From: Paludibacter sp.
GTDB lineage: Bacteria; Bacteroidota; Bacteroidia; Bacteroidales; Paludibacteraceae
Direction: 5' to 3'
Length of the DNA: 44,315 nt
Assembly (NCBI GenBank): GCA_010365115.1
Contig: JAAFGX010000026.1
Span: forward strand, 1 to 44,315
Under the pieces are notes generated by a model. The model searched no databases. It was not told the DNA's origin and saw only the letters and a program-made list of their open reading frames with translations. Of the stretch, positions 1,918 through 20,410 are shown piece after piece (position 1 is the first letter of the stretch; each line of letters opens with the position of its first letter). Position numbers and translations under genes: made by a program.

Positions 1918-3633
1918 TTATTTCTTTTGAAATTTCTTTATATTACTATGGAAATCAACACCTTCGTTAGTGGAGTTTACATATTCTTTACGCACTGCAA
2001 AGTCTCCGAATCGTTCACCATCATTTCTATTGGTTGCAAAATCTTTTAAAATGGGTTTAATCGCTGCCAGAATTTCGTCTTCGTTAAGTAATTCGGCATA
2101 AAGCTTATTGAGGCGATCGCCCGTAAATCCGGCACCCAAATACAAATTATACTTGCCGGGCGATTTTCCAACCAATCCAATCTCGCCTAGGTAAGGACGA
2201 GCACAACCGTTAGGACAACCGGTCATGCGAAGAATAATGTTTTCTTCTTCCAATTCAAGCGTTCTAAGTTCTTGTTCAATTTTATCAATTAGTGAAGGTA
2301 GATATCGTTCAGCTTCTGCAAAAGCCATTCCACACAATGGCAAGGCAACACAAGCCAAACTATTGCGGCGTAAACCACCGATACTTTTGTTTAAATTCCA
2401 TTTTTCGAGTAGTTTATCAATCTTTTCCTTATCTGCTTCATTTACATCGCCAATTACCAGATTTTGATTACCGGTAAGGATAAAACTCCCACTATGATTT
2501 TTTGCAATATCATTTAATGCCAATTTAAGTTGTAGTTTTTCATCGTTTTTTACTTTTCCGCCCTCAACAAAAAGTGTAAAATACCATTTCCCGTTATAAC
2601 CTTTTTTCCACCCAAAACTATCGCCGTTACTATCGAAATGGTAGGGTTTAACAGGTTGTAATTTATCGCCCAATATTTCTTTAATAGCTGTCTTGAATAC
2701 ATTCAATCCTAACCGGTCAATTGTGTATTTAAGTCGGGCATTTTTCCTGTCGGAACGATTACCGTTTTCTCGCTGCCATATCATTATGGCTTTTGCAGCT
2801 TCGAGTGTGTTCTCGGGGGTCACAAATCCAATCAAATCGGCCAAGCGTGGATAAGTGGTTTCAATGCCAAAAGTCATGCCCATGCCACCACCCGCTAAGA
2901 TATTGTAACCTATAAGTTTACCTTTTTCGGCAATGGCAATAAAACCTAAGTCGTTAGCATACACATCTACATCGTTGCGAGGAGGAATGGCTACCGCAAT
3001 TTTAAATTTACGGGGCAAATAGGTTTTACCGTAAAGCGGTTCAAAATCTTCTTTCTTTTCGCCGCCCGCCACCAAGTCATCGCCCACCCAAATTTCATGA
3101 TAAGCAGTAGTTTGGGGCGTTAAACCAGTATGCAGATTAAGTGCGTCTTTATAAACAAGTTGATGAATCTCTGTTTCCCACGGATTGGCCGAAGTCATTA
3201 CATTACGGTTTACATCACCACAAGCAGCCAGCGTATCCAGTAAGGTTTGGTTGATACCTTTAATGGTAGCTTTAAGCTTTCGTTTAACCACACCATGCAG
3301 TTCAAAAGCCTGACGAGTTGTCAGTTTTATGGTTGGATTTCCATACGTATCGGCCAGTTTATCAATATCTAACCATTGTTGCGCAGTAACAATTCCACCC
3401 GGAACCCGTACACGAATAAGGAAACTATAAAGCGGTTCCAGTTTTTGTTTACGACGTTCATCATCTAGGTCGCGGTCTTGTTGTTGGTATGCGCCGTGAA
3501 GTTTAATCAGTTGCTGATCATCCTCGCTTATACTTGCAGTAATTTGGTCGTTTAGACCTTCGCGAATTGTTCCACGGAGGTAGTTGCTATCTGTTTTGAT
3601 ACGTTCTACTTCGGATAATTTTTGGTTGTTCAT
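1918..3633 (-). CDS. cysI: Sulfite reductase hemoprotein beta subunit
   Basis: 571 residues, the usual CysI length. It reduces sulfite to sulfide with six electrons at a siroheme bridged to a [4Fe-4S] cluster. The cluster ligands are visible as C428/C434 (ACVALPLC) and C473/C477 (GCPNGC). RVRVPGG, TTRQAFELHG and NRNVMTSANPW are typical of the two ferredoxin-like and siroheme-binding halves. It lies 240 nt downstream of cysJ on the same strand with no promoter visible between them, so it is probably read from the cysJ promoter. It is the consumer of the siroheme made by the genes at 6241-12594. Confidence 0.95.
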   Translation of the reverse strand: MNNQKLSEVERIKTDSNYLRGTIREGLNDQITASISEDDQQLIKLHGAYQQQDRDLDDERRKQKLEPLYSFLIRVRVPGGIVTAQQWLDIDKLADTYGNPTIKLTTRQAFELHGVVKRKLKATIKGINQTLLDTLAACGDVNRNVMTSANPWETEIHQLVYKDALNLHTGLTPQTTAYHEIWVGDDLVAGGEKKEDFEPLYGKTYLPRKFKIAVAIPPRNDVDVYANDLGFIAIAEKGKLIGYNILAGGGMGMTFGIETTYPRLADLIGFVTPENTLEAAKAIMIWQRENGNRSDRKNARLKYTIDRLGLNVFKTAIKEILGDKLQPVKPYHFDSNGDSFGWKKGYNGKWYFTLFVEGGKVKNDEKLQLKLALNDIAKNHSGSFILTGNQNLVIGDVNEADKEKIDKLLEKWNLNKSIGGLRRNSLACVALPLCGMAFAEAERYLPSLIDKIEQELRTLELEEENIILRMTGCPNGCARPYLGEIGLVGKSPGKYNLYLGAGFTGDRLNKLYAELLNEDEILAAIKPILKDFATNRNDGERFGDFAVRKEYVNSTNEGVDFHSNIKKFQKK

Positions 3634-5724: not shown

Positions 5725-5772
5725 CAAAAGTATACTATGCTTCAAGTTATCACAATACCGCTATTATTGTAA
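5725..5772 (-). promoter_or_regulatory. cysJ promoter with proximal dyad O2
   Basis: Minus strand: -7 box TACTTTTG (5725-5732), then 22 bp that begin with TGTG at the -33 position, then the imperfect dyad TTACA-N8-GGTAT (5755-5772). The dyad centre is 35 bp from the -7 centre. The stronger dyad O1 (5778-5795) is centred 58 bp away. The same layout occurs at three other promoters of the sulfate and siroheme genes. Confidence 0.75.
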
Positions 5773-5777
5773 TTTAC

Positions 5778-5795
5778 ATACCATAATTAAGGTAT
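5778..5795. promoter_or_regulatory. Shared operator O1 (ATACC-N8-GGTAT)
   Basis: A perfect 5-bp inverted repeat with an 8-bp spacer, midway between the divergent cysJ and DUF2061 genes. Its centre (5786.5) is 58 bp from the -7 box of each promoter, so one regulator could serve both directions. Matching dyads occur at 7632-7649 and 12748-12765. Confidence 0.75.
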
Positions 5796-5800
5796 ATAAA

Positions 5801-5848
5801 ATCACTTAACAGAGGGATTTTGAAAATGATTGGAAATGCTGAATTTTG
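5801..5848 (+). promoter_or_regulatory. Promoter of the DUF2061-cysG-hemA unit with dyad O2
   Basis: The weak dyad ATCAC-N8-GGGAT (5801-5818) is followed at once by TTTG, an 18-bp spacer and the -7 box GAATTTTG (5841-5848, one mismatch to TAnnTTTG). O2 is centred 35 bp and the shared O1 58 bp upstream of the -7 box. The dyad is imperfect; the spacing is what makes it convincing. Confidence 0.65.
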
Positions 5849-5883
5849 CATTTTCAAATCTATTAATTTAAATCAGTACAAGA

Positions 5884-6132
5884 ATGAGTAAAAAAATCTA
5901 TACGGGAGAAAAGAATTATCGAAGCATAATTAAAGCTGCATCATGGCGAGTAATTGGAACTATTGACACCATAGCCATATCGTTTATTATTACAGGAAAT
6001 ATAAAATTCGCAGTGTCTATTGGAGGAGTGGAACTATTTACCAAAATGTTTCTATACTATCTTCATGAACGAGGTTGGAATAAAATATCTTTTGGGAAAA
6101 TTGAACAGAAACCTAATGATTATCAAATTTAA
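5884..6132 (+). CDS. DUF2061 family small membrane protein
   Basis: 82 residues. It matches DUF2061: RSIIKAASWRVIGTIDT, a membrane segment at about 27-44, a second hydrophobic stretch at about 44-60, then the family ending YYLHERGWNKI. The biochemical role is unknown. DUF2061 genes are known to occur beside sulfate assimilation genes, and here the gene shares an operator with cysJ, so a membrane role tied to sulfate metabolism is inferred. It is followed after 108 nt by the siroheme gene, with no clear promoter between. Confidence 0.85.
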   Translation: MSKKIYTGEKNYRSIIKAASWRVIGTIDTIAISFIITGNIKFAVSIGGVELFTKMFLYYLHERGWNKISFGKIEQKPNDYQI

Positions 6133-6240
6133 ATGTTGTCTAAACCCTTTAGGAGAATTAGAATGGCAATTTCATTTTTTAATACTATAATTAACAAATA
6201 AAACTAAAATAGTTCCTTTTTTTTGGGGCTAGTGTAACTT

Positions 6241-6717
6241 ATGACAAAAGCAGATCTACAATTTCTACCCATTTCGATAAACGTCACCAATAAAAAGATT
6301 TTAATGGTAGGCGGTGGAAAAATAGCCACCCATAAAGCTACTATTATGAAACGGTTTGTGGATAACGTTACAGTTCTTGCACCCGAAATCTCTCCCGAAA
6401 TTGAAGCATTGGGCTATACTTTGATATGTAAAGAGTACGAAGCAAGTGATTTGGAAGGCTTTTTCTTAGTATATGTTGTTACCGACAATCATGAGCTGAA
6501 CCGCCAAGTGAAACTTGATGCCGAAGCACGGGGAATTTTAACCAGCGTTTGCGATGCTCCATTGCTGTGCGACTTTGTTTCGCCAGCTATTCACAAAGAA
6601 GGTCATATCACAGTTTCAGTGGGCTCAAACGCACAAAACGTGTATCAATCAGTTGATATACGCAATCAGATTACAGAATTATTCGAAAATGGTACACTAC
6701 AAATCCGTCAACTTTAA
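6241..6717 (+). CDS. Precorrin-2 dehydrogenase / siroheme synthase N-terminal domain protein
   Basis: 158 residues, related to the N-terminal half of CysG and to Met8p. VGGGKIATHKA (23-33) is the NAD-binding loop. D105 in SVCDAPLLCDF corresponds to the catalytic Asp of CysG/Met8p, which oxidises precorrin-2 to sirohydrochlorin and may also insert iron. The family is usually about 200 residues or more; here the C-terminal helical dimerisation part is cut short. The final 29 nt overlap hemA, so the two are translationally coupled. No separate chelatase is seen, so this protein may perform both steps. Confidence 0.85.
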   Translation: MTKADLQFLPISINVTNKKILMVGGGKIATHKATIMKRFVDNVTVLAPEISPEIEALGYTLICKEYEASDLEGFFLVYVVTDNHELNRQVKLDAEARGILTSVCDAPLLCDFVSPAIHKEGHITVSVGSNAQNVYQSVDIRNQITELFENGTLQIRQL

Positions 6718-7597
6718 ACAATTCTGCCTGACAGAGCGCGAAGCATTTTTGCAGACGCTCATAGCTGTAGAAGCTGAACCCCAAGTGCTGCTGCAAACTT
6801 GTAGCCGTGTGGAACAATATTCTGGGAAAGGCAAAGTGGATGAAGAAGTGGCGCGCTATCTTTTTCGATTGGTATCTGGTTTGGAGTCGTCGTTTATAGG
6901 CGAAACAGCCATTCAGGGACAAGTAAAAAAGGCTTATCAGGAAGCAGCCTGCCGTTTTCAACTTTCAGCTTCGTTGCATAAATTATTTCAAACGGCATTG
7001 CGGGTTGGTAAACGTGTGCGAACTGAATCGGGCATTTCGAAAGGTGCCATGTCGCACAGTCAGGCTACCATTGAGATTTTACAGAAAGAAAATATAGACT
7101 TATCTACATCAATTATCAGCATTATAGGCGCCAATAAACTGAATGAAGACATTATTCGGTTTTTACAATCTAAAGGTGCTTATTCCCTTTTTCTGAGTAA
7201 CCGGAGTTACGATAAAGCGGAGGAATTGGCCAATAAATTCGCATGTAGCTCATTCCGATTGGTTGATAAACGCGAGTTCTTTTCGTTCAGCGATGTGCTT
7301 ATTTCAGCCACTTCTGCGCCACACCTTATTGTAAAGTCAGAACATATTGACCCCGACAAAAAAATATTAATTCTTGACCTTGCTTTCCCGCGCGATGTAG
7401 ATGTAAATATTGGTCTTTTACCCAACGTTACACTTTATAATTTGGAAGATATTAAAGTTCAGGTGAGTGAAAACATTGAAGCAAGAAATAAAAAAGTGGA
7501 ACTGGCCATGCAAATTATTGACGAAGAAGTAGCGCTTTTTTGTGCCAAAATAAATAAGATGCAGCCCAAGATGGGTGAGTTCCAAGTTGCCCTGTAA
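6689..7597 (+). CDS. hemA: Glutamyl-tRNA reductase, compact form
   Basis: 302 residues against about 420 in the usual enzyme. It reduces Glu-tRNA to glutamate-1-semialdehyde. Visible: the catalytic cysteine C38 in QTCSRVEQY (usual TCNRxE), RLVSGLESSFIGE and GQVKKAY (usual VASGLDSxxxGE, QVKxA), KRVRTESGI, a dehydrogenase domain from about 140 with a degenerate nucleotide loop (IIGANK), and DLAFPRDV. The chain ends on the spinal helix, so the C-terminal dimerisation domain is missing; about 20-25 residues are also missing between the Cys motif and VSGL, where E. coli has His99. An upstream in-frame Met (6554) is rejected because those residues are antisense-like and overlap the preceding gene. 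Confidence 0.85.
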   Translation: MVHYKSVNFKQFCLTEREAFLQTLIAVEAEPQVLLQTCSRVEQYSGKGKVDEEVARYLFRLVSGLESSFIGETAIQGQVKKAYQEAACRFQLSASLHKLFQTALRVGKRVRTESGISKGAMSHSQATIEILQKENIDLSTSIISIIGANKLNEDIIRFLQSKGAYSLFLSNRSYDKAEELANKFACSSFRLVDKREFFSFSDVLISATSAPHLIVKSEHIDPDKKILILDLAFPRDVDVNIGLLPNVTLYNLEDIKVQVSENIEARNKKVELAMQIIDEEVALFCAKINKMQPKMGEFQVAL

Positions 7598-7631
7598 GTT
7601 TGGGATGGTGGAATTCCAACACACGAAAAGC

Positions 7632-7701
7632 ATACCGCTTTTGAGGTATAAATTTACCCTATTAAAGCGATTGTGCAGATGAACAGAAATGTAGAATTTT
7701 G
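7632..7701 (+). promoter_or_regulatory. Promoter and operators of the hydrolase-hemCD-hemB-hemL operon
   Basis: O1 is ATACC-N8-GGTAT (7632-7649), perfect. O2 is TTACC-N8-GCGAT (7654-7671), its second arm weak. TGTG follows at 7672, then 18 bp, then the -7 box GAATTTTG (7694-7701), identical to that of the DUF2061 promoter. O1 and O2 centres are 57 and 35 bp upstream of the -7 centre, as at the cysD promoter. Confidence 0.7.
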
Positions 7702-7731
7702 TATCGTAATTTTACTACAATTTTAAACGAT

Positions 7732-8259
7732 ATGACAAACTACTTTATTATCCCCGGTTATGGCGGCTCAGGTTCTGACCACTGGCAAACATATTTTGAA
7801 AATACTCAGGAAAATTTTCAGCGCATAGAGCAAAAAGATTGGGATAAACCGGTCATTGACGAATGGGTAGAAAATGTGGATAAAGCTATTTCCGGTTACG
7901 ATCCGGAGACAGTAGTATTGGTGGCGCACAGTTTGGGTTGCTGGACCGTGGCTGAATGGGCAAAACGTTATAATCGGAAAATTAAAGGTGCATTATTGGT
8001 TGCACCACCGGATGCCGACTTGGTTCGCGAGAAACTTCAACATCGGTTATTCAACGAAATTCCTAGACAGAAGATTAATGCCAAAACCATTCTAGTTGCA
8101 AGTACCAACGATCATTGGGCTACTATTGATACAGCTAAAACCTATGCTGAAAGTTGGGGAAGCGAATTTGTAAATATTGGCGAGGCTGGTCATATCAATA
8201 ATCTTTCGGGATATGGCGAGTGGAATGAAGGTTTGGAAATTTTAAAAAGATTAGCATAA
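7732..8259 (+). CDS. RBBP9/YdeN-type alpha/beta hydrolase
   Basis: 175 residues. Small serine hydrolase of the RBBP9/YdeN family: IIPGYGGSGSDHWQ at the N-terminus, nucleophile elbow AHSLG, acid in ASTNDHW and base in GEAGHIN. The natural substrate of this family is not known. A TTG at 7699 is open upstream, but it falls on the promoter -7 box, so the ATG at 7732 is the start. The stop codon abuts the ATG of the hemC fusion with no gap, so this is the first gene of the tetrapyrrole operon. A role in siroheme or sulfur metabolism is inferred only from operon and promoter. Confidence 0.8.
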   Translation: MTNYFIIPGYGGSGSDHWQTYFENTQENFQRIEQKDWDKPVIDEWVENVDKAISGYDPETVVLVAHSLGCWTVAEWAKRYNRKIKGALLVAPPDADLVREKLQHRLFNEIPRQKINAKTILVASTNDHWATIDTAKTYAESWGSEFVNIGEAGHINNLSGYGEWNEGLEILKRLA

Positions 8260-10239
8260 ATGAGAGTAATCAGCCGTAACAGCAAATTGGCTTTGGTACA
8301 AGTGGACGAGTGTTTTGCACTTTATCCCGAATTGGCTTATGAGCTGGTTTCGGTTGCGTCGTTTGGCGATAAGCGGAAAGATATTTCACTGTTGGAAAAT
8401 CCACCTGCCGATATTTTTACCCGCGAACTGGATGCTGCTTTACTAGATGGAACAGCTGATATTGCTGTCCATTCGGCAAAAGATTTGCAGTATCCAATTA
8501 CAAAAGGACTCGAAGTTATTGCGTTGTTCGAAGCATTTGATCAAACCGATTCGTTGGTGAGCCGTAAAAACCTGATTTTAAGAAGTTTACCGTCCGGCGC
8601 TCGAGTAGGAACGAGTTCGCCCACTCGTCGCCGTGAACTTTTGATAATTCGCCCTGATGTAGAGGTTGTTAGTATACGTGGAACTATTGAGGAACGTATT
8701 GCATTAGTCGATTCAGGTGAAATAGATGCGCTCATTGTTGCATCTTGTGCTTTGACTCGCTTAGGATTATCGCACCGGGTTGCCGAAGTGTTGCCTTTTG
8801 AAACGCATCCGCTGCAAGGAAATTTGGCCATAGTGGCAAAAGTATACAGTGAAGATTTGAAAGTATTGTTTGCGGATAAAGATATTCGACGCAATTATGG
8901 GAAAGTGACACTTGTGGGCTTTGGTCCTGGAAATCCCGATTTATTGACCATAGGCGGCGAAAAAGCCATTGCGCAAGCAGATACCATTTTTTACGACGAT
9001 TTATTAGACAAAGATTTCTTACAAAAATATACTGCCAAATTGGTGTATGTTGGCAAACGAAAAGGTCAACACAGCGCAGAACAAGCTGAAATAAACCGTT
9101 TGTTGCTCAATGAAGCCAAAGACGGAAAACGTGTGGTGCGCCTTAAAGGTGGTGACCCAATGATTTTTGCACATGGTGGCGAGGAAGTGGAATTTCTAAA
9201 AAGTAATTTTATAGAGGTGAAAGTTATTCCGGGTATTACTACTGCCCTTGCTTTGGCTTCGCTCACGCAAATTCCCCTCACGCATCGCGGCATTGCTTCT
9301 TCGGTGGCATTTGTTTCCGGTCAAGCTGCCGAAATAAAATTGCCTGATACTGACACCGTGGTTTGTTATATGGCAGGTTACAATATCCCACTTATTGCCA
9401 CCAAAGCCATTGCCGAAGGCAGAAATCCTCAAACTCCGGTGCTGCTGGTGTCGAAAGTTTCGTCGCCAGAGCAACAGGAATTTTTCTATACTTTGGAATC
9501 GCTTAGCCGTGAAACAGAGCCTTTCCCAACTCCGATTATCAGTATTATTGGAGATGTGGTTGGTTTGCGAAATAAATCGGAACAGGATGTAAAACGCCCG
9601 ACCTATTTGGTAACAGGCACTCAAAAAGAACATTATGATAAAATAGGACGGGTGATTCATCAGCCGTTAATCAGCATAGAAGCCATTTCGCCCAATCCAG
9701 GTTTGGAAACAGAATTGAATCGGCTCGACTCATACGATTGGCTGTTTTTTACAAGTCGTTATACTGTGAAATTCTTTTTTGAAGCATTAGAAAATTCAGG
9801 TAAAGATACCCGTTATTTAGCCAAATTGAAAATAGCTTCGGTTGGAAAGATTACTTCTCAGGAACTGAAACTTCACGGTATTACTCCAGATGTACAGGCA
9901 GAAGAAGAATCCTCTGTCGGACTTTTAAAAAATTTTGAAAGGAATAATTTCACCGTTGGAAAAGTATTTATACCTCGTTCGGATATTGGATTGTCGGTTT
10001 TGCCCGACGGACTTAAGAAACTTGGTTGGAAAGTTAGCACTGTAAAGGTTTATCACAATACATATCCTGAAAATCTGAAACCGCTCGACTTGACAAATAT
10101 TCCCAATATTGTGTTTTCATCACCTTCGTGCGTTACTAACTTTTTACGTTTATACGGAACATTTCCAACGAATAAAAATTACATTTTCAGGGGAAAAGAA
10201 ACGGAGAAAAGGTTTAATGAAGCCACCAAAATCCCCTGA
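8260..10239 (+). CDS. Fused HemC (truncated) - CobA - HemD
   Basis: 659 residues in three parts. Residues 1-213 resemble porphobilinogen deaminase domains 1-2: SRNSKLALVQ, catalytic Asp at D75 (AVHSAKD), VGTSSPTRRR, SIRGTIEERI. Domain 3, with the cofactor-bearing Cys of the GGC motif (Cys242 in E. coli), is absent, and the position of E. coli Arg131 is Thr. Residues about 216-450 are a complete uroporphyrinogen-III methyltransferase (VGFGPGNPDLLT, VRLKGGDPMIF, TPVLLVSKVSSPEQQ) that makes precorrin-2. Residues about 455-659 resemble uroporphyrinogen-III synthase (LFFTSRYTVKFF, VFSSPSCVTNF) but end early at a repeat-like hairpin containing the stop codon. Together they would take porphobilinogen to precorrin-2 without releasing intermediates. 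Confidence 0.85.
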   Translation: MRVISRNSKLALVQVDECFALYPELAYELVSVASFGDKRKDISLLENPPADIFTRELDAALLDGTADIAVHSAKDLQYPITKGLEVIALFEAFDQTDSLVSRKNLILRSLPSGARVGTSSPTRRRELLIIRPDVEVVSIRGTIEERIALVDSGEIDALIVASCALTRLGLSHRVAEVLPFETHPLQGNLAIVAKVYSEDLKVLFADKDIRRNYGKVTLVGFGPGNPDLLTIGGEKAIAQADTIFYDDLLDKDFLQKYTAKLVYVGKRKGQHSAEQAEINRLLLNEAKDGKRVVRLKGGDPMIFAHGGEEVEFLKSNFIEVKVIPGITTALALASLTQIPLTHRGIASSVAFVSGQAAEIKLPDTDTVVCYMAGYNIPLIATKAIAEGRNPQTPVLLVSKVSSPEQQEFFYTLESLSRETEPFPTPIISIIGDVVGLRNKSEQDVKRPTYLVTGTQKEHYDKIGRVIHQPLISIEAISPNPGLETELNRLDSYDWLFFTSRYTVKFFFEALENSGKDTRYLAKLKIASVGKITSQELKLHGITPDVQAEEESSVGLLKNFERNNFTVGKVFIPRSDIGLSVLPDGLKKLGWKVSTVKVYHNTYPENLKPLDLTNIPNIVFSSPSCVTNFLRLYGTFPTNKNYIFRGKETEKRFNEATKIP

Positions 10240-10245
10240 TGGGGA
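10232..10245. repeat. CCCC/GGGG hairpin at the hemD stop codon
   Basis: TCCCC-TGAT-GGGGA forms a 5-bp stem, and the TGA in its loop is the stop codon of the HemC-CobA-HemD gene. It resembles the C/G-run repeat remnants at 15150-15168, 15242-15273 and 16054-16085. The HemD domain seems to end about 20 residues early here, which would fit a repeat insertion. Confidence 0.5.
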
Positions 10246-10298
10246 CTTAAAAACGGAGTAACTAAAAAAGAAAATATTAGTTTAAAATAAAAGAAAAT

Positions 10299-11348
10299 AT
10301 GAATGGATTATCAAATAGAATTATGTCGGAATCTTCTTTGAAACCACTTTTGGAGGACAAGGTGGCTGGAAAAGAGGCTATATTTTCCCGTTTTCGTCAA
10401 TACAGAATCGATGCCGCCACCCGCGAGTTTTATGCCGATGTGCGAGTTTCAGCTACTGATTTTATTTATCCATATTTTATTGTGGATGGCGAAAACGAAA
10501 TACAACCTATTCGAACGCTAAAAGGCATTTCACGGTTTTCAATTGATCAATTATTGATTGATTTGGAAGAAACGGTGGCATTAGGTATTGATAAAATATT
10601 ACTTTTTGGAGTTATTACAGATAACTTAAAGGATGAAATCGGCTCAGCAGGTTACAATCCCGATTCGCTCGTATGCCGTGCTGTCCGAGCAATCAAAAAG
10701 CATTTTCCGCAGGTTGTGATCTTTACAGATGTTTGCTTGTGCGAATATACTTCACACGGACATTGCGGATTGTTGGACGGAGAAAAAATTGATAATGACA
10801 GTTCATTACCGCTTTTAGCAAAAATCGCGCTGGTTCATGCGCAGGCTGGAGCCGATTTTGTAGCGCCGTCGGCCATGATGGATGGACAGATTCAGGCTTT
10901 AAAAGAAATTTTAAAAGCACATAAACTCGACACGAAAGTGCTGGCGTATTCGGCCAAATACTCTTCAAACTTTTACGGTCCTTTTCGCGATGCGGCGGGT
11001 TCTGCTCCAAGTTTTGGCGACCGTAAAACCTACCAAATGGATTACCGCACTAGTCATCAGGGAATTGAAGAAATTGCTGCCGACATTGAAGAAGGTGCCG
11101 ATTGGGTAATGGTGAAACCGGCGCAGGCCTATCTGGATATTATTCAGCGGGCGAGTGTAGCGTTTCCCACGGTTACGTTGGCTGCCTATCAGGTTTCAGG
11201 CGAATATGCCTTGCTCAAAAATGGAGCCGATGCAGGATTGATAAACGAGGAACAAGGATTTTTAGAATCGCTTACGGCCATAAAACGTGCCGGAGCAAAC
11301 TTTATAATAACGTATTATGCAAAGGACTTTGTCAGAAAAGGCTTATAA
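10299..11348 (+). CDS. hemB: Delta-aminolevulinic acid dehydratase (porphobilinogen synthase)
   Basis: 349 residues. It condenses two 5-aminolevulinate molecules to porphobilinogen. The two Schiff-base lysines are K220 (YSAKYSSNFYGPFRDA) and K273 (VMVKPA). The zinc-cysteine set C146/C148/C156 (DVCLCEYTSHGHCG) marks the zinc-dependent type. The N-terminal arm is about 30 residues longer than usual; an internal ATG at 10323 is an alternative start. The gene overlaps hemL by 32 nt, so the two are translationally coupled. Full length otherwise, unlike its neighbours HemA and HemC. Confidence 0.95.
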   Translation: MNGLSNRIMSESSLKPLLEDKVAGKEAIFSRFRQYRIDAATREFYADVRVSATDFIYPYFIVDGENEIQPIRTLKGISRFSIDQLLIDLEETVALGIDKILLFGVITDNLKDEIGSAGYNPDSLVCRAVRAIKKHFPQVVIFTDVCLCEYTSHGHCGLLDGEKIDNDSSLPLLAKIALVHAQAGADFVAPSAMMDGQIQALKEILKAHKLDTKVLAYSAKYSSNFYGPFRDAAGSAPSFGDRKTYQMDYRTSHQGIEEIAADIEEGADWVMVKPAQAYLDIIQRASVAFPTVTLAAYQVSGEYALLKNGADAGLINEEQGFLESLTAIKRAGANFIITYYAKDFVRKGL

Positions 11349-12594
11349 CGAAGCTTCAAAATATATTCCCGGTGGCGTAAACAGTCCGGTGCGCGCTCTC
11401 CTAAGTGTGGGCGAAGCGCCATTGTTTGTATCCAAAGCCGATGGCGTGAATTTTACCGATGTGGATGGCAATGTATTTACTGATTTTTGCCTTTCGTGGG
11501 GAGTTTTTATACTCGGGCACAATCACAAAACGGTAAACAAAGCTGTAAAAGCGGCTATTGACAATGGCACTAGTTACGGAATTCCCACCTTGCTGGAAAC
11601 GCAATTAGCCAGATTATTGGTCGAATCTGTTCCGTCACTTGAAAAAGTACGGTTTGTGAGTTCGGGAACCGAAGCCGTGATGAGTGCTGTACGTGTGGCT
11701 CGCGGATTTACCGGACGCAATATCATTGTAAAATTCGATGGTTGCTACCACGGTCATGCCGATCATTTATTGGTTTCGGCAGGTTCGGGAGTTGCTACGC
11801 TTAGTGGAAGTTCGTCGAGTGGTATTCCTGTTGATTTTACGAAACATACTTTAAGTTTGCCTTACAATGATTTTGAGGCTGTAAAAATAGTTTTTGAAAA
11901 GTATGGCAATGATATTGCGGCTGTAATTTTAGAACCAGTAGCGGCCAATATGGGTGTTATTGTTCCTGAGAAACAGTTTCTGTCTGGTTTGCGTGAAATA
12001 ACCAAACAATACGGCTCGTTATTGATTTTTGATGAGGTAATCACAGGTTTTCGTTTAGCGTTGGGCGGAGCTCAGCAACGATTTGGCATTACTCCCGACC
12101 TATCCGCTTTTGGTAAAATTATTGGCGGTGGTTTTCCGGCTGCCGCTTTTGGTGGTCGTGCCGAAATAATGGACATGTTGTCACCCAATGGCCCTGTTTA
12201 TCAAGCCGGAACGCTCTCGGGCAATCCTATTGCAATGACAGCCGGTATTGAAACCATTCAATTACTCAGTCAGCCTGGTTTTTATTCGCGTTTGGAAACA
12301 AAAAGTGAAACTTTTATTGCTGAACTTAAAGAGATTATTAAAGGGAAAGACATTGTGCTGAATCACATTGGTTCTATGTTTACACTTTTTTTCTCCGATC
12401 ATGAAATTCGAAATTTCAATGATGTAAAAAACAGCGATACCGAGCGTTTTGCCCGATTCTTCAGAGCATTAATCCGTGAAAATATCTATTTCTCACCATC
12501 GGCCTACGAAGCAAGTTTTATCTCCGAAGCACATACCGAGGTGCAATTGAAACAAGTTTTGCAAACAATAAAAAAGGAATTAGAAAAAATCTAA
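11317..12594 (+). CDS. hemL: Glutamate-1-semialdehyde 2,1-aminomutase
   Basis: 425 residues, normal length. A PLP-dependent class III aminotransferase-fold enzyme that converts glutamate-1-semialdehyde to 5-aminolevulinate. The PLP lysine is K267 in SAFGKIIGGGFP; IFDEVITGFR, SSGTEAVMSAVR and GCYHGHADHLL are family motifs. Together with hemA it shows the C5 route to aminolevulinate. It is the last gene of the operon and is followed by a hairpin terminator. Confidence 0.95.
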   Translation: MQRTLSEKAYNEASKYIPGGVNSPVRALLSVGEAPLFVSKADGVNFTDVDGNVFTDFCLSWGVFILGHNHKTVNKAVKAAIDNGTSYGIPTLLETQLARLLVESVPSLEKVRFVSSGTEAVMSAVRVARGFTGRNIIVKFDGCYHGHADHLLVSAGSGVATLSGSSSSGIPVDFTKHTLSLPYNDFEAVKIVFEKYGNDIAAVILEPVAANMGVIVPEKQFLSGLREITKQYGSLLIFDEVITGFRLALGGAQQRFGITPDLSAFGKIIGGGFPAAAFGGRAEIMDMLSPNGPVYQAGTLSGNPIAMTAGIETIQLLSQPGFYSRLETKSETFIAELKEIIKGKDIVLNHIGSMFTLFFSDHEIRNFNDVKNSDTERFARFFRALIRENIYFSPSAYEASFISEAHTEVQLKQVLQTIKKELEKI

Positions 12595-12633
12595 ACTTAC
12601 CTTACAAAAAATCAATGAAGAAAAATCGGAGTA

Positions 12634-12690
12634 AGAAATCCTATCTTTCACTTACCTCATCCTAAGTAAATGATAGGACTTTCTATTTTT
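12634..12690 (+). terminator. Terminator after hemL
   Basis: 12634-12645 pairs with 12672-12684 (12 bp with a one-base bulge, core TCCTATC/GATAGGA). A second short stem lies inside the loop and ATTTTT follows. This separates the hem operon from the cysD promoter. Confidence 0.7.
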
Positions 12691-12747
12691 AAGCCAGATA
12701 TCAAAATGATTCTATCGTACCATTGAGCCAGTTTATTTCAAAATTAA

Positions 12748-12817
12748 ATACCTCATTCATGGTACACATTTACTCACATTGTGGTATTCTTTGGCATTGA
12801 TGTTAGCTGTAATTTTG
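12748..12817 (+). promoter_or_regulatory. cysD promoter with operators O1 and O2
   Basis: O1 is ATACC-N8-GGTAC (12748-12765, four of five pairs). O2 is TTACT-N8-GGTAT (12770-12787). TTTG lies at 12790 and the -7 box TAATTTTG at 12810-12817. O1 and O2 centres are 57 and 35 bp upstream of the -7 centre, identical to the hydrolase-hem promoter. It drives cysD-cysN-cysH. Confidence 0.75.
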
Positions 12818-12865: not shown

Positions 12866-13768
12866 ATGAGTTACAAATTAACCCATCTCAAAGAATTAGA
12901 GTCCGAATCTATATATATTCTGCGCGAAGTGGCAGCACAGTTCGAAAAACCTGCTTTGCTTTTTTCGGGCGGAAAAGATTCAATCGTAATGGCCTATTTG
13001 GCTTACAAAGCATTTTATCCAGCTGCCATTCCGTTTCCGTTTGTACATATCGACACCGGACATAACTTCGAAGAAACGCTGACTTATCGTGACGATTTGG
13101 TAAAGCTTCTTGGAGCAAATCTGATTATAGGATCGGTAGAAGAATCTATTGCTCAAGGCCGTGCGGTAGAAGAAAAGGGCTATACTGCCAGTCGAAATAA
13201 ATTGCAAACAATTACACTATTGGATACGCTCGAAAAATACAAATTTGATGCTGCTTTGGGTGGTGCTCGTCGTGACGAAGAAAAAGCCCGTGCCAAAGAG
13301 CGTTTCTTTTCACACCGCGATGAATTTGGACAATGGGATCCAAAAAATCAACGTCCCGAATTGTGGAATATCTTCAACGGAAAAAAACAACTGGGCGAGC
13401 ATTTTCGCATTTTTCCAATAAGTAACTGGACGGAGATGGATGTATGGCAATATATTTTACAAGAAAATATTCCATTACCGTCGTTGTATTACACACACAA
13501 ACGAGAAGTATTTGAGCGCGATGGGGTAATATATGCAGCCTTAGATGCAATTCCCCGTAAGTCAACTGAGACAGTAGAGCTAAAACAAGTTCGTTGCCGT
13601 ACTATCGGCGATATTACGTGTACCGGTTTAACACTATCAACTGCTAATTCGTTGGTTGATATTATTGACGAAATAGCCAGCTCACGTGTTACCGAACGTG
13701 GTGGTCGATCGGACGATAAACGCTCTGAAGCTGCCATGGAAGACAGAAAAAAGGCGGGATATTTTTAA
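12866..13768 (+). CDS. cysD: Sulfate adenylyltransferase subunit 2
   Basis: 300 residues. Catalytic subunit of ATP sulfurylase, which makes adenosine 5'-phosphosulfate (APS) from ATP and sulfate. PP-loop SGGKDS at 34-39. RRDEEKARAKERFFSHRD and the C-terminal GRSDDKRSEAAMEDRKKAGYF are strongly conserved in CysD. It is the first gene of cysD-cysN-cysH, and the gap to cysN contains only an AT-rich microrepeat. Confidence 0.97.
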   Translation: MSYKLTHLKELESESIYILREVAAQFEKPALLFSGGKDSIVMAYLAYKAFYPAAIPFPFVHIDTGHNFEETLTYRDDLVKLLGANLIIGSVEESIAQGRAVEEKGYTASRNKLQTITLLDTLEKYKFDAALGGARRDEEKARAKERFFSHRDEFGQWDPKNQRPELWNIFNGKKQLGEHFRIFPISNWTEMDVWQYILQENIPLPSLYYTHKREVFERDGVIYAALDAIPRKSTETVELKQVRCRTIGDITCTGLTLSTANSLVDIIDEIASSRVTERGGRSDDKRSEAAMEDRKKAGYF

Positions 13769-13769
13769 T

Positions 13770-13803
13770 CAATTCATAATTCATAATTGATAATTCACAA
13801 TTG
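13770..13803. repeat. AT-rich microrepeat between cysD and cysN
   Basis: About 3.5 units of the pattern AATTCATAATT / AATTGATAATTCAC fill most of the 50-nt gap. Similar arrays sit at 25780-25810, 30167-30194, 35164-35193 and 40842-40881, nearly always touching a start or stop codon. Confidence 0.75.
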
Positions 13804-13818
13804 AACAAAAACAAGATT

Positions 13819-15135
13819 ATGTTAACGCAAACAAAAGATACAACAGGATATTTAGACATGGAATTGCTGCGATTTAGTACCGCAGGAAGTGTGGATGACG
13901 GCAAAAGTACGCTTATAGGGCGATTACTTTACGATAGCAAATCTATATTCGAAGATCAAATGCAAGCTGTAAAAGATGCAAGCAAACGCCTTGGCCTTGG
14001 CGATGAAGTAAACCTCGCGTTGCTCACCGATGGCCTTCGTGCAGAGCGCGAACAAGGCATTACTATCGATGTGGCTTATCGCTATTTTGCAACTCCTAAG
14101 CGTAAATTTATTATTGCCGACACTCCGGGACATATTGAATATACCCGAAACATGGTTACCGGTGCTTCCACTGCGGATGTTGCCATTATTCTTATCGATG
14201 CCCGGCATGGAATTATCGAGCAAAGTAAACGCCACTCGTATATTGCTTCGTTATTGCAAATACCTAATGTGGTGGTGGCAATAAACAAAATGGATTTGAT
14301 CGATTTTTCCGAAGTTGTTTTCAATTCTATTAAAAGGGAATACGAAGAAATATCCAAAATATTAAAGTTGAAAAATGTCATTTTTATTCCAATTTCGGCA
14401 TTGAATGGCGATAATGTGGTGGATGCTTCAAATAAAACACCTTGGTACAAAGGCGAAACTCTGCTACATTTGCTGGAAACACTTCCGGTACGTGTTGACG
14501 AAACCAAACTTCCAGCTCGTTTCCCGGTCCAATTGGTCATTCGTCCGCGTAGCGATGAATTTCATGATTATCGCGGTTATGCCGGTCGACTTTCGGGTGG
14601 TAGTTATAAAGTAGGCGATGAAGTAACGATTTTACCTTCAAAAACACAGTCGAAAATTGTTGCAATTGACGAAGGTGATAAGTCATTAAATGAAGCTTTT
14701 ACTCCTCAATCTGTTTCCATACGTCTAGCCGACAATGTAGATGTGAGCCGTGGAGATATCATTGTAAAAAGTTCGGAACAAAAGCCAACTGTAAGTGCCA
14801 ATGTGTCGCTACTAGTTTGCTGGTTGAATCATAGACCACTAAACGAAGGGGGTAAATATATTATTCGTCATGCAACGGAAGAGACAAGAGCAATAATACA
14901 AAACATTCATTTTAAGGTAAATATCAATACACTTGAGAATATATTGGATGATAAAACAGTGAAAGTAAATGATATTGCACATATCTCCATTAAAACATTA
15001 AAGCCATTGAAATATGATTCGTACAGCGAAAACCGTACCACCGGAAGTTTGGTGCTCATAGATGAAAATACCTTCGAAACTGTGGGTGCTGGAATGATTG
15101 TACATAATTTGGAAGATGAAACGTTTACTATTTGA
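13819..15135 (+). CDS. cysN: Sulfate adenylyltransferase subunit 1 (GTPase)
   Basis: 438 residues. EF-Tu-like GTPase subunit that drives APS synthesis by CysD. G1 is GSVDDGKST (about 23-31), G3 DTPGHIEYTRNM, G4 NKMD, G5 SAL; two beta-barrel domains follow. There is no APS kinase (CysC) fusion at the C-terminus. A TTG at 13801 is open, but it lies in the microrepeat, so the ATG at 13819 is chosen. It is followed after 85 nt by cysH. Confidence 0.96.
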   Translation: MLTQTKDTTGYLDMELLRFSTAGSVDDGKSTLIGRLLYDSKSIFEDQMQAVKDASKRLGLGDEVNLALLTDGLRAEREQGITIDVAYRYFATPKRKFIIADTPGHIEYTRNMVTGASTADVAIILIDARHGIIEQSKRHSYIASLLQIPNVVVAINKMDLIDFSEVVFNSIKREYEEISKILKLKNVIFIPISALNGDNVVDASNKTPWYKGETLLHLLETLPVRVDETKLPARFPVQLVIRPRSDEFHDYRGYAGRLSGGSYKVGDEVTILPSKTQSKIVAIDEGDKSLNEAFTPQSVSIRLADNVDVSRGDIIVKSSEQKPTVSANVSLLVCWLNHRPLNEGGKYIIRHATEETRAIIQNIHFKVNINTLENILDDKTVKVNDIAHISIKTLKPLKYDSYSENRTTGSLVLIDENTFETVGAGMIVHNLEDETFTI

Positions 15136-15220: not shown

Positions 15221-15982
15221 ATGAATAAACAAGATGAAACTAACTCCAACTTACCTTTAGGGGTTGGGGGTCATATTGAAGCTCTCAATGAGGAATTCGA
15301 AGGTAAATCTCCTGAAGAAATTCTTACTTATTTTCTCAATGAATTCAAAGGAAAAATTGCCCTTTCGTCGAGTTTGAGCATCGAAGATCAAGTATTGACC
15401 GATTTGATTGTCAGGATAGATAAAGATGCACGAATTTTCACACTCGATACCGGAAGGCTTTTCCCCGAAACTTATTCACTTATCGACAAAACTAACAATA
15501 AGTATGACATTGCCATCGAAGTTTTTTTTCCCGAGAGTTCCAAAGTTGAAAAAATGGTAAAGACAAATGGCATTAACCTGTTTTACGACAGTATTGAAAA
15601 GCGGAAACAATGCTGTCAGGTTCGAAAACTTGAACCACTAAAAAGAGCATTTCAGGGATTGGAAGTTTGGATTTGTGGCCTCCGTCAAGAACAATCTATC
15701 ACTCGTATGGGCGCTAAAACTGTAGAATGGGACGAAGCAAATGGTATCATAAAAATAAATCCATTGGTTCATTGGCTCGAAAAAGAGGTTTGGGAATATA
15801 TTAAAACTAATAAAGTTCCTTATAACGAATTGCACGACAAAGGTTTCCCAAGCATTGGTTGCCAGCCTTGCACACGTGCTGTGAAGCTGGGCGAAGATTT
15901 ACGTGCAGGACGCTGGTGGTGGGAAGATCCTGAACACAAAGAATGCGGATTGCATAACAGACCAACAAAGATGACCCCCTAA
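15221..15982 (+). CDS. cysH: Adenylyl-sulfate (APS) reductase
   Basis: 253 residues. The catalytic Cys is C242 in KECGLH. Two further pairs, C131-C132 (KQCCQVRK) and C214/C217 (GCQPC), are the [4Fe-4S] ligands that distinguish APS reductases from PAPS reductases. With no APS kinase in the window, the direct path APS to sulfite is inferred. FTLDTGRLFPETY and ICGLRQEQS are family motifs. Residues 8-18 (NSNLPLGVGGH) are encoded by a G/C-run repeat at 15242-15273 and are not typical of the family, so the gene appears to have absorbed a repeat at its 5' end. Confidence 0.93.
   Translation: MNKQDETNSNLPLGVGGHIEALNEEFEGKSPEEILTYFLNEFKGKIALSSSLSIEDQVLTDLIVRIDKDARIFTLDTGRLFPETYSLIDKTNNKYDIAIEVFFPESSKVEKMVKTNGINLFYDSIEKRKQCCQVRKLEPLKRAFQGLEVWICGLRQEQSITRMGAKTVEWDEANGIIKINPLVHWLEKEVWEYIKTNKVPYNELHDKGFPSIGCQPCTRAVKLGEDLRAGRWWWEDPEHKECGLHNRPTKMTP
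15242..15273. repeat. Dispersed repeat remnant inside the cysH 5' end
   Basis: A 32-nt stretch with core CCTTTAGGGGTTGGGGG lies within the coding sequence and encodes the atypical residues 8-18 of CysH. Related C/G-run pieces lie at 15150-15168, 15973-15990 and 16054-16085, all in the cysN-htpG interval. Confidence 0.45.
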
Positions 15983-19176: not shown

Positions 19177-19605
19177 ATGAAAAAAATCACATTACGTTCA
19201 AAAGCAATAACACTTTTATTACTTGGAGTAATTTCTATCGCTTGTGCCCAATCCTCACCTGAATCATTGATTGACAAGCGCGAACGAAAAAAAAACATGA
19301 CCATTAATGAATACAATACCGATGCAAATGGTAAAAATCGTTGGCTAGATCACACCACAGTTTATAACGCAAGAGGCAATAAAATTGAAGAAATTGAATA
19401 TGCAACTTACGGTATGCGCGAAAGAGTTCTGTTTGAATATGACACAACTGACTTTTGCATCAAAGAGGTAGTTTATGACGATCGGAACAAGGTAAGTAGA
19501 ATTAGAAAGTACGCTTACAACCCCGACGGAACGAAAAAAACTCAATACAATTACTTGCCAAATGGACGATTATATTCTACAAAACAATACCAGTACTCTA
19601 AATAA
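19177..19605 (+). CDS. Exported small protein with YD/RHS-like beta repeats
   Basis: 142 residues with a signal peptide; C23 in SIACAQ could be a lipobox cysteine or part of a signal peptidase I site. The mature part has short strands with alternating Tyr and turns: TTVYNARGNKIEE, VLFEYDTTDFCIKE, RKYAYNPDGTKKT, YNYLPNGRLY, which resemble YD (RHS) repeats. No enzyme motif is seen. The last 44 nt overlap the VTC gene. Confidence 0.6.
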   Translation: MKKITLRSKAITLLLLGVISIACAQSSPESLIDKRERKKNMTINEYNTDANGKNRWLDHTTVYNARGNKIEEIEYATYGMRERVLFEYDTTDFCIKEVVYDDRNKVSRIRKYAYNPDGTKKTQYNYLPNGRLYSTKQYQYSK

Positions 19606-20410
19606 TACGGTCAAAAATGAAAGCAGAGCAAATGATTCACTTTTAGATTTATTTGCCCGTTTTGATTCTATTCCACTTGAGGAGATGGATAATGTGAAGT
19701 TGATGAACAGAGTGGATACAAAGTTCCTCCTCAACATTGCACATTTACCTTTTTTGATGAGCAAAGCTGTGGATCATTATCGTATTGTTGAAATTGATGG
19801 ACATAGAATTTCGCCCTACTCCACCATTTACTTCGATACCGACGATGCGGATATGTACATAATGCATCACAACGGAAAGTTAAATCGCTTTAAAATAAGG
19901 ATGCGATCGTATGTCAATTCTAAGATTAGCTTTCTGGAAATTAAAAGGAAAAACAATAAAGGTAGAACGTCAAAAAAAAGAGTTGAAATAAATGTGGATC
20001 AATTTCTATCAATGACATTTTCCGATGATGAAAACCATTTTATTACCACAAAATCACCTTATCTTCCCTCTGGATTAAAACCTCAGCTTCAAAATTTCTT
20101 TCAACGAATTACACTTGTAGATAAAAATTTGACAGAACGCGTCACTCTCGATACAAGTTTGGTTTATCGGGATTTGGCGAATGGAAACGACAAAAGCATT
20201 GATGGTCTGGTAATTGTAGAAATGAAGCAAGATGGGGCATACAAATCTTACTTTAAGGAATATCTGAACGAATTGAAGATTTTGCCCGGAAGCATGAGTA
20301 AATATTGTTTGGGAATGGTGCTTCTATATCCCGATTTGAAAAAGAACCGATTTAAAAAGAAACTAAGAATTATTAATAAAATTACAAATAATAACCATGG
20401 TACAATCTGA
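19562..20410 (+). CDS. VTC-domain (polyphosphate polymerase-like) protein
   Basis: 282 residues. Matches the VTC domain of the CYTH-like tunnel-fold superfamily, the catalytic part of yeast Vtc4, which makes polyphosphate from ATP. Basic tunnel residues in order: RVDTKFL (50-56), KIRMRSY (111-117), FLEIKRK (124-130), KKR (138-140). An acidic metal-binding site is suggested by VEMK (E220). The N-terminal 40 residues look unstructured. It overlaps its neighbours by 44 and 14 nt. Bacterial VTC proteins with DUF4956 partners are a known pair; the product of this one is unproven. Confidence 0.85.
   Translation: MDDYILQNNTSTLNNTVKNESRANDSLLDLFARFDSIPLEEMDNVKLMNRVDTKFLLNIAHLPFLMSKAVDHYRIVEIDGHRISPYSTIYFDTDDADMYIMHHNGKLNRFKIRMRSYVNSKISFLEIKRKNNKGRTSKKRVEINVDQFLSMTFSDDENHFITTKSPYLPSGLKPQLQNFFQRITLVDKNLTERVTLDTSLVYRDLANGNDKSIDGLVIVEMKQDGAYKSYFKEYLNELKILPGSMSKYCLGMVLLYPDLKKNRFKKKLRIINKITNNNHGTI

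What the first reader, a model, noticed from the sequence alone, without database searches (positions are those of the whole stretch)
5725..12817. Unreported-looking regulon: four sulfate/siroheme promoters share the same two-dyad architecture
Each of the four promoters in the cluster has O1 (ATACC-N8-GGTAT), then O2 (TTACN-N8-GGTAT, weaker), then T[GT]TG, then a -7 box. Centre distances to the -7 centre: cysJ 58 and 35; DUF2061 58 and 35; hydrolase-hem operon 57 and 35; cysD 57 and 35. O1 and O2 centres are 22-23 bp apart, two helical turns. O1 sites: 5778-5795 (serving two promoters), 7632-7649, 12748-12765. O2 sites: 5755-5772, 5801-5818, 7654-7671, 12770-12787. A strong upstream dyad near -64 and a weak one abutting -33 is the geometry of an activator; LysR-type regulators use a similar layout, though the half-sites do not fit the T-N11-A rule, so the family is open. 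The site set links CysJ/I, CysD/N/H, the siroheme enzymes, DUF2061 and a hydrolase.
Basis: partly seen in the sequence, partly recalled or inferred. Interest (0 to 1): 0.93.

Follow-up and report, generated by a model that had tools for sequence, protein, structure and literature searches.

The report
NarL-type sulfur regulon in Bacteroidales
In Paludibacter and some related bacteria, one shared two-site promoter design stands in front of genes for taking up and building in sulfur, and it is likely switched on by a NarL-type regulatory protein that none of the papers found in our searches ties to sulfur supply.

Summary
All four window promoters carry two tandem dyads at fixed distance from the -7 box; 200 shuffles of the window give none. 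O1 alone is near chance (125 places with up to one mismatch vs 105 control). A profile of 47 such promoters has six strong hits in the own genome: cysJ, DUF2061, hydrolase-siroheme operon, cysD, cysK, and a DUF4395 gene of unknown role; the next is weaker by five orders. 39 of 39 close cysK orthologues carry the site. In relatives it also precedes metY-like, phosphate-type ABC transporter, cysE-like and SusCD/sulfatase genes.

The likely regulator is a NarL/LuxR-type protein: beside sites in six loci of three families, and tracking the motif in 100 genomes (45 both, 7 motif only, 2 protein only, 46 neither). Two Paludibacter genomes have cysK but neither site nor protein. Crp and Rrf2 proteins do not track the motif; the dyads break the LysR rule. 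TACC-N8-GGTA has 7-2-7 inverted-repeat spacing, as NarL uses; paired NarL sites drive E. coli ogt. Own copy: contig C138, with cysK, just upstream of mnmA. Binding, activation and signal are inferred. No report of this regulon was found.

The parts
5778..5795 (.). O1 dyad ATACCATAATTAAGGTAT, shared by cysJ (-) and DUF2061 (+) promoters
   Evidence: part of R1 hits E 2.6e-13 and 1.2e-13
5755..5772 (-). O2 of cysJ, TTACAATAATAGCGGTAT
5725..5732 (-). -7 box of cysJ, TACTTTTG
   Evidence: one search place 5725-5794 (-)
5801..5818 (+). O2 of DUF2061, ATCACTTAACAGAGGGAT (weak)
5841..5848 (+). -7 box of DUF2061 (GAATTTTG, one mismatch)
7632..7649 (+). O1 of hydrolase-siroheme operon, ATACCGCTTTTGAGGTAT
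   Evidence: R1 hit E 1.9e-10
7654..7671 (+). O2 of hydrolase operon, TTACCCTATTAAAGCGAT
7694..7701 (+). -7 box of hydrolase operon (GAATTTTG, one mismatch)
12748..12765 (+). O1 of cysD, ATACCTCATTCATGGTAC
   Evidence: R1 hit E 5.5e-10
12770..12787 (+). O2 of cysD, TTACTCACATTGTGGTAT
12810..12817 (+). -7 box of cysD, TAATTTTG
1918..3633 (-). cysI, sulfite reductase hemoprotein (downstream of cysJ)
   Evidence: TIGR02041
3874..5700 (-). cysJ, sulfite reductase flavoprotein
   Evidence: TIGR01931
5884..6132 (+). DUF2061 membrane protein
   Evidence: PF09834
6241..6717 (+). siroheme synthase N-terminal-type protein
   Evidence: TIGR01470
6554..7597 (+). hemA-like glutamyl-tRNA reductase (ORF as listed; true start likely later)
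   Evidence: TIGR01035, 196.9 bits, under its cut-off of 209.55
7732..8259 (+). serine hydrolase PF06821, recurring regulon member
   Evidence: relatives
8260..10239 (+). hemC-cobA-hemD fusion
10299..11348 (+). hemB
11317..12594 (+). hemL
12866..13768 (+). cysD
13801..15135 (+). cysN
15221..15982 (+). PAPS-reductase-type protein (cysH-like)
   Evidence: PF01507

Best explanation
The four promoters share one architecture and likely belong to one sulfur-acquisition regulon: each carries two tandem 18-bp dyads that are likely bound by dimers of a NarL/LuxR-type response-regulator-like protein, which would switch the promoter on. In the own genome that protein is encoded on contig C138 (35717-36364, minus; L265:1498-2175), 23 bp upstream of mnmA and on the contig that also carries cysK with its own site. 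Shown: the sites, their fixed distance to the -7 box, their conservation before cysK, cysD, cysJ/DUF2061, DUF4395 and the hydrolase in Paludibacter, the protein's repeated position beside sites, and its co-occurrence with the motif. Inferred: that it binds TACC-N8-GGTA as a 7-2-7 inverted repeat; that O1 (about -64) is the strong site and O2 (about -42) abuts the -33 region, where the protein touches RNA polymerase; that it activates when sulfur or cysteine runs short. Untested: the signal, and whether the conserved Asp62 is phosphorylated.
For: (1) Six strong profile hits in the own genome, five at sulfate, cysteine or siroheme genes or in their cluster and one at DUF4395; next best E 2.3e-4 (all six were in the 47-promoter training set). 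(2) 39 of 39 cysK orthologues of 80% identity or more (38 Paludibacter, 1 sister genus) have the site at E<=1.3e-12; 22 of these promoters were not in the training set. (3) Targets in relatives: cysD operons, cysK, metY-like, cysE-like, phosphate-type ABC operons, DUF4395, PF06821 hydrolase, anaerobic sulfatase maturase, sulfatases behind SusCD. (4) Regulator beside sites in six loci of four genera and three families: L227, L217, L218, L209, L237, L235; site E-values 1.6e-9, 4.2e-9, 9.5e-7, 1.0e-10, 3.7e-8, 1.6e-7. (5) Co-occurrence over 100 genomes 45/7/2/46; outside the genus 5/1/2/44, Fisher p 4.7e-5; other families 3/1/2/34, p 0.004. (6) G003 and G006, Paludibacter 94-95% complete with cysK, lack a site before cysK, a strong site anywhere, and the protein. 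(7) 37 of 40 core copies in Paludibacter lie with mnmA in the fetched DNA. (8) Sequence and fold match LiaR/VraR/RcsB/NarL. (9) Tandem 7-2-7 NarL sites, one abutting -35, activate E. coli ogt (PMC7419079: abstract, introduction and discussion read).
Against: Six motif-bearing Paludibacter genomes gave no protein above 140 bits: G004, G008, G026, G035, G036, G038 (completeness 87, 76, 87, 97, 68, 82%); G035 is nearly complete. G061 has four sites below E 1e-8 but only a 168-bit homologue. G088 and G089 have the protein but best motif scores of 1.6e-7 and 5e-5, under my cut, which was set after seeing the scores. Two of the six 'beside a site' cases (L218, L235) rest on sites weaker than that cut. 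Genomes in one genus are not independent, so the overall p value is inflated. The own copy has no site upstream of it. Only the first four bases of each half (TACC) match the NarL heptamer. One acidic-pocket residue of the receiver is Asn in most copies, so ordinary phosphorylation is not assured. Other regulator families were not tested for co-occurrence beyond Crp and Rrf2. Nothing here measures binding or expression.
Confidence: 0.75

Rival explanations
1. A Crp/Fnr-family activator binds the two dyads (class II site near -42, class I site near -64).
For: The spacing would suit Crp-type activation (recalled), and the own genome has four good Crp/Fnr matches.
Against: Crp/Fnr proteins occur in 98 of 100 genomes, including G003 and G006 that lack a strong site, so the family as a whole does not track the motif; single paralogues were not sorted. 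No such promoter was found in the loci around the four own genes. The one pair near sulfur genes sits beside TusA/DsrE/YeeE-like genes (labels by reading) with a different, FNR-like box.
Confidence: 0.08
2. An Rrf2-type regulator (CymR/IscR-like) controls the promoters.
For: CymR controls cysteine metabolism in Firmicutes (recalled); Rrf2 matches exist in 44 of 60 genomes searched.
Against: G007 (94% complete), G025 (98%) and G031 (82%) carry the cysK site but gave no Rrf2 match.
Confidence: 0.03
3. A LysR-type activator (CysB-like) with recognition and activation sites binds at -64 and -42.
For: Layout is similar to LysR promoters (recalled); sulfur control by LysR proteins is known (recalled).
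Against: Dyads are even-centred and break T-N11-A. LysR genes were not searched for, so their absence is not claimed.
Confidence: 0.05
4. The NarL-type protein binds here but represses, or works at O1 only, with O2 a promoter element.
For: O2's right half is degenerate (GCGAT at many cysK promoters) and overlaps the -33 region.
Against: A phase of 57-59 bp to the -7 box (56-59 was allowed by my own selection), a -33 region that is TTTG in only 10 of 47 promoters, and a strong site upstream of the promoter fit an activator better.
Confidence: 0.09

Closest known systems
NarL of E. coli at the ogt promoter (PMC7419079)
   Same: Response-regulator fold with LuxR-type HTH; 7-2-7 inverted repeats; two tandem sites, one abutting the -35/-33 region.
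   Different: Sites centred at -44.5 and -77.5 at ogt, about -42 and -64 here; signal there is nitrate or nitrite via NarX/NarQ; here the targets are sulfur genes under the Bacteroidetes -33/-7 promoter and no kinase gene is seen beside the own copy in the 2.5 kb read.
LiaR/VraR response regulators (5hev, 4gvp)
   Same: Best sequence and fold matches of the regulator, full length.
   Different: Cell-envelope stress systems (recalled); 22-23% identity in the fold alignment.
CysB (LysR) sulfur regulon of E. coli
   Same: Similar gene set in function: cysDN, cysJI, cysK, sulfate uptake (recalled).
   Different: Unrelated protein family and site; this regulon also takes in siroheme genes and, in some species, sulfatase/SusCD loci.
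CymR (Rrf2) of Bacillus and CysR (Crp family) of cyanobacteria
   Same: Control sulfur/cysteine genes (recalled).
   Different: Other families; neither family tracks the motif here.

Membership tests
NarL/FixJ-type response regulator (LuxR-HTH output) | C-terminal GerE/LuxR HTH domain | tested here: met
   PF00196 E 5.8e-14 in the own protein; also L227, L217, L209, L235
NarL/FixJ-type response regulator (LuxR-HTH output) | N-terminal receiver domain | tested here: met
   Pfam Response_reg was not reported for the own copy, L217 or L209, was under its cut-off in L235 and over it in L227; full-length alignment of the own copy to LiaR/VraR/NarL and fold match
NarL/FixJ-type response regulator (LuxR-HTH output) | Receiver active site: acidic pair, phospho-Asp, Thr/Ser, Lys | tested here: inconclusive
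   Of 59 rows (2 are fragments with gaps there): Asp62 in 57, Lys113 in 56, Ser90 in 49; second acidic residue is Asn in 49
NarL/FixJ-type response regulator (LuxR-HTH output) | Cognate histidine kinase / phosphorylation | not testable with these tools
   No kinase among the ORFs of L265, 2.5 kb around the own copy; kinases were not searched for elsewhere
NarL-type DNA site (7-2-7) | Two heptamers TACYYMT as inverted repeat with 2 bp between | tested here: inconclusive
   TACC...GGTA halves at 7-2-7 spacing are nearly fixed in the 47 promoters, but by my selection; bases 5-7 of the heptamer mostly read A-T-A. TACYYMT is recalled; the 7-2-7 arrangement is in PMC7419079
LysR-type regulator site | T-N11-A within an odd-centred dyad (recalled) | tested here: not met
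   Dyads are 18 bp, even-centred
Rrf2-controlled regulon | An Rrf2 gene in every genome with the site | tested here: not met
   No match in G007, G025, G031
Crp/Fnr-controlled regulon | A Crp paralogue whose presence tracks the site | tested here: inconclusive
   PF13545 in 98 of 100 genomes with or without the site; paralogues were not sorted into orthologue groups

The most novel reading that the evidence does not exclude
An orphan NarL-type regulator encoded with the tRNA-thiolation gene mnmA is the master switch of sulfur acquisition in part of the Bacteroidales. It controls sulfate uptake and reduction, cysteine and methionine synthesis, siroheme supply and, in some species, sulfatase-bearing glycan-use loci through paired 7-2-7 sites: another kind of bacterial sulfur regulon that takes the place of CysB and CymR, with duplicated copies of the regulator captured by individual sulfatase/SusCD clusters.
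Probability: 0.6. Interest if true: 0.75.

Novelty: new variant of a known kind. Interest (0 to 1): 0.64.

Why it matters
How Bacteroidota regulate sulfur supply appears to be open: my searches of the open-licence paper library listed nothing on it. This gives a candidate protein, its site and a predicted regulon: 6 strong promoters in the own genome, and 10 below E 1e-8 (15 below 1e-6) in the cultivated type strain P. propionicigenes. It ties DUF2061, DUF4395 and a PF06821 hydrolase to sulfur metabolism by regulation, and puts sulfatase/SusCD loci behind the same site in some species, so that glycan use may in part be sulfur foraging.

Tried and rejected
Rrf2: searched in 60 genomes, rejected because three motif-bearing genomes gave no match. 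Crp/Fnr: my own first favourite because of the -42/-64 spacing; set aside because the family does not track the motif, no such promoter lies around the four own genes, and the sulfur-linked pair sits by a different box. A tandem-dyad pattern that was too strict found nothing, not even the known sites. O1 alone as a genome-wide probe was useless. Four of the eight exact O1 dyads in the genome (L001, L002, L006, L007) are not among the strong profile hits. Weaker profile hits in P. propionicigenes (for example 320967, a partial match with no clear target) are not counted as targets. The hydrolase reference in my scripts was off by one base, so the scripts did not label it; it was recognised by reading and then by Pfam. 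The named-genome scan returned only three loci. One paper search led to the NarL site literature; those for a Bacteroidota sulfur regulator led nowhere.
Full report
WHERE WE ARE. The window is contig C107 of a 4.79-Mb, 207-contig genome. The three named loci with the closest CysJ (70-71%) are Paludibacter MAGs, and 47 of the 99 relatives used are in the window's genus. I take the genus to be Paludibacter (order Bacteroidales). G016 is a single contig of 3,685,504 bp, exactly the size printed for P. propionicigenes WB4 (PMC3072083, abstract read).

THE GENES. The window carries cysI, cysJ, DUF2061, a siroheme-synthase N-terminal protein, hemA, a PF06821 serine hydrolase, a hemC-cobA-hemD fusion, hemB, hemL, cysD, cysN and a PAPS-reductase-type gene. 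So the siroheme supply of sulfite reductase is packed with sulfate reduction.

THE OBSERVATION. The seven dyads are at the stated places and the stated distances are right. The O2 consensus in the finding is too tidy: two of four O2 sites keep only one good half or less. In the window the architecture occurs 4 times and in 200 dinucleotide shuffles 0 times. O1 by itself is close to chance genome-wide.

IT IS CONSERVED. A pattern that fixes O1, TnTG and TAnnTTTG, but says nothing of O2, hit 36 of 100 genomes at 47 places, against 5 places for the reversed control. I read 31 of these places. 16 stand before cysK, 4 before a DUF4395 gene and 1 before cysJ; all 21 show the O2 left half at the right distance, against 1 of the 10 other places. 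From 47 promoters, selected for the architecture and so not an unbiased sample, I built a sequence-only profile R1. In the own genome R1 gives cysK 1.5e-16, DUF2061 1.2e-13, cysJ 2.6e-13, hydrolase 1.9e-10, DUF4395 2.0e-10, cysD 5.5e-10, then nothing better than 2.3e-4. All six were in the training set, so it is the gap that counts; the model's E-values are rough (one search uses a shortened calibration). For cysK I took all 39 orthologues of 80% identity or more that one search listed: 39 of 39 carry the site, E at most 1.3e-12; 22 were not in the training set. Of 27 upstream regions of cysK-like genes from 27 genomes without the regulator (a part of those that one search listed), none matched even at E 10. 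Of four regions from G061, G088 and G089, two matched weakly (L357, L358).

THE REGULON. With the same site in relatives: cysD (L133-L135, L144, L205), DUF2061/cysJ (L128, L129, L131, L134, L136, L137, L144), the PF06821 hydrolase (L133, L134, L208, L223, L233; L133 by reading, the others by Pfam), cysK (G016 has two with a strong site), metY-like genes (L140, L234 by family model; L211, L226, L228, L235 by reading), a cysE-like gene (L239, by reading), phosphate-type binding proteins and ABC permeases (L144 and L227 beside cys genes; also L207, L209, L241), and SusCD (by reading) with sulfatases behind a site (L142, L237). In P. propionicigenes one cysK operon goes on with ThiS-like, MoeB-like, DsrE-like, TusA-like, JAB-domain and cysE-like genes (the MoeB, DsrE and TusA labels are by reading, and cysE is below its NCBIfam cut-off). 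The ABC proteins that I tested match phosphate-type models below their cut-offs; that they carry sulfate is inferred from their neighbours.

THE REGULATOR. Reading genes around sites turned up a LuxR/NarL-type protein again and again: directly upstream of the site of a cysK-ABC-cysH-like operon (L227, family f7); divergent from metY-cysK with the site between (L217, genus g4); behind a site and metY (L218); after a site and before an anaerobic sulfatase maturase and a binding protein (L209, P. propionicigenes); between two sites (L237); and behind metY and the PF06821 hydrolase (L235, family f30). The sites at L218 and L235 are weak (9.5e-7, 1.6e-7). Six of the proteins were aligned and searched in 100 genomes. 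Scores fall in two groups with a gap: 218 bits and up, then 168 (G061), then 150 and down. The own copy scores 246 bits, at C138:35717-36364 (minus), on the contig with cysK. It lies 23 bp before mnmA; 37 of 40 core copies in Paludibacter lie with mnmA in the fetched DNA.

CO-OCCURRENCE. Taking motif as best R1 E below 1e-8 (cut chosen after seeing the gap from 1.7e-9 to 1.4e-7) and regulator as 218 bits or more: 45 genomes have both, 7 motif only, 2 regulator only, 46 neither, Fisher p 1.9e-18. Outside the genus 5/1/2/44, p 4.7e-5; in other families 3/1/2/34, p 0.004; Paludibacter of 90% completeness or more 25/1/0/2, p 0.008. Kinship inflates the first value; the outside-genus tables are the fairer ones. 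G003 and G006 are the natural test: they have cysK (73-74% identity) but neither the regulator nor a site before cysK, and no strong site elsewhere (best 3.4e-5 and 9.3e-4). Against: six Paludibacter genomes of 68-97% completeness have the site without the protein, G035 (97%) being the most awkward.

WHAT THE PROTEIN IS. The own copy has the GerE HTH (PF00196). Full length it matches LiaR/VraR and NarL in sequence, and an AlphaFold2 model (mean pLDDT 81.5, pTM 0.60) finds LiaR, VraR, ChrA and RcsB first, with NarL at rank 34. Over 59 rows, two of them fragments, the phospho-Asp position is Asp in 57 and the Lys is kept in 56; one acidic-pocket residue is Asn in 49. No kinase gene is seen in the 2.5 kb around the own copy; none was searched for elsewhere. 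Whether it is phosphorylated or senses a metabolite is open. Source names for its relatives are generic (NarL/FixJ family response regulator).

HOW IT LIKELY WORKS. TACC-N8-GGTA is two heptamers in inverted repeat with 2 bp between (TACCATA-AA-CATGGTA), the 7-2-7 form that dimeric NarL binds (PMC7419079, introduction read; the heptamer letters TACYYMT are recalled). At E. coli ogt two tandem 7-2-7 sites at -44.5 and -77.5 activate, the authors argue by contact with the alpha C-terminal domain, and NarL also works from -67.5 (abstract and discussion read). Here, if the -7 box is centred at -7, O2 lies near -42 and O1 near -64. The -7 TAnnTTTG and -33 TTTG elements are the primary-sigma consensus of Bacteroides (PMC7366714, passages read). 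The -33 region of the 47 promoters is TTTG in 10, another TnTG in 27 and neither in 10, which suits promoters that need an activator. I therefore propose that a strong dimer at O1 helps a weaker one at O2, which recruits RNA polymerase when sulfur is scarce. The mechanism in this paragraph is inference.

NOVELTY. Response regulators and paired 7-2-7 sites are known; sulfur regulons are known with LysR, Rrf2 and Crp-type proteins (recalled). A NarL-type sulfur regulon in Bacteroidota is not in any paper that my searches listed (open-licence library only; 25 of 45, 0, 1 of 1, 8 of 8, 12 of 24 and 5 of 5 papers listed; titles and abstract starts seen). I call it a new variant of a known kind.

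Noticed in passing
L209:1534-2196, L237:13345-14007, L248 (G033), L250 (G024), L257 (G012): A second, diverged copy of the regulator (C-terminus ...FALKNGLVDLTEYYI or similar) recurs in several Paludibacter genomes; in the two loci read (L209, L237) it lies with sites and an anaerobic sulfatase maturase-like gene.
   Followed up: partly
G000:C43:78002-78506 (L050, L051): Two convergent Crp/Fnr genes lie between a DsrE-like gene and TusA/YeeE-like genes (labels by reading); an FNR-like box (TTGATATACATCA) precedes tusA. Perhaps a separate thiosulfate or sulfane-sulfur circuit.
   Followed up: partly
window 7732-8259; L223, L233, L235, L208, L134: A PF06821 serine hydrolase of unknown role recurs with the site in genomes of four families; worth a biochemical look.
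   Followed up: partly
G000:C47 (L003:955-1419) and relatives: A DUF4395 membrane protein gene is a recurring target of the site in Paludibacter.
   Followed up: partly
window 6241-12594: A set of C5-pathway genes (hemA, hemL, hemB, hemC-cobA-hemD fusion) is packed with siroheme and sulfate genes; the listed hemA ORF overlaps the siroheme gene by 164 bases, so its true start is probably later.
   Followed up: no
L302 (G041:C152:8002-8646): The mnmA-linked regulator copy of G041 is interrupted by a TAG, in a genome with many sites that has an intact second copy elsewhere.
   Followed up: no
L128 (G061:C15): A genome of another family holds a cys cluster with CysD 82% and DUF2061 76% identical to the window's and the same kind of site, which looks like transfer of the cluster between families.
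   Followed up: no
window 19562-21119: A VTC-domain gene followed by a DUF4956 gene.
   Followed up: no
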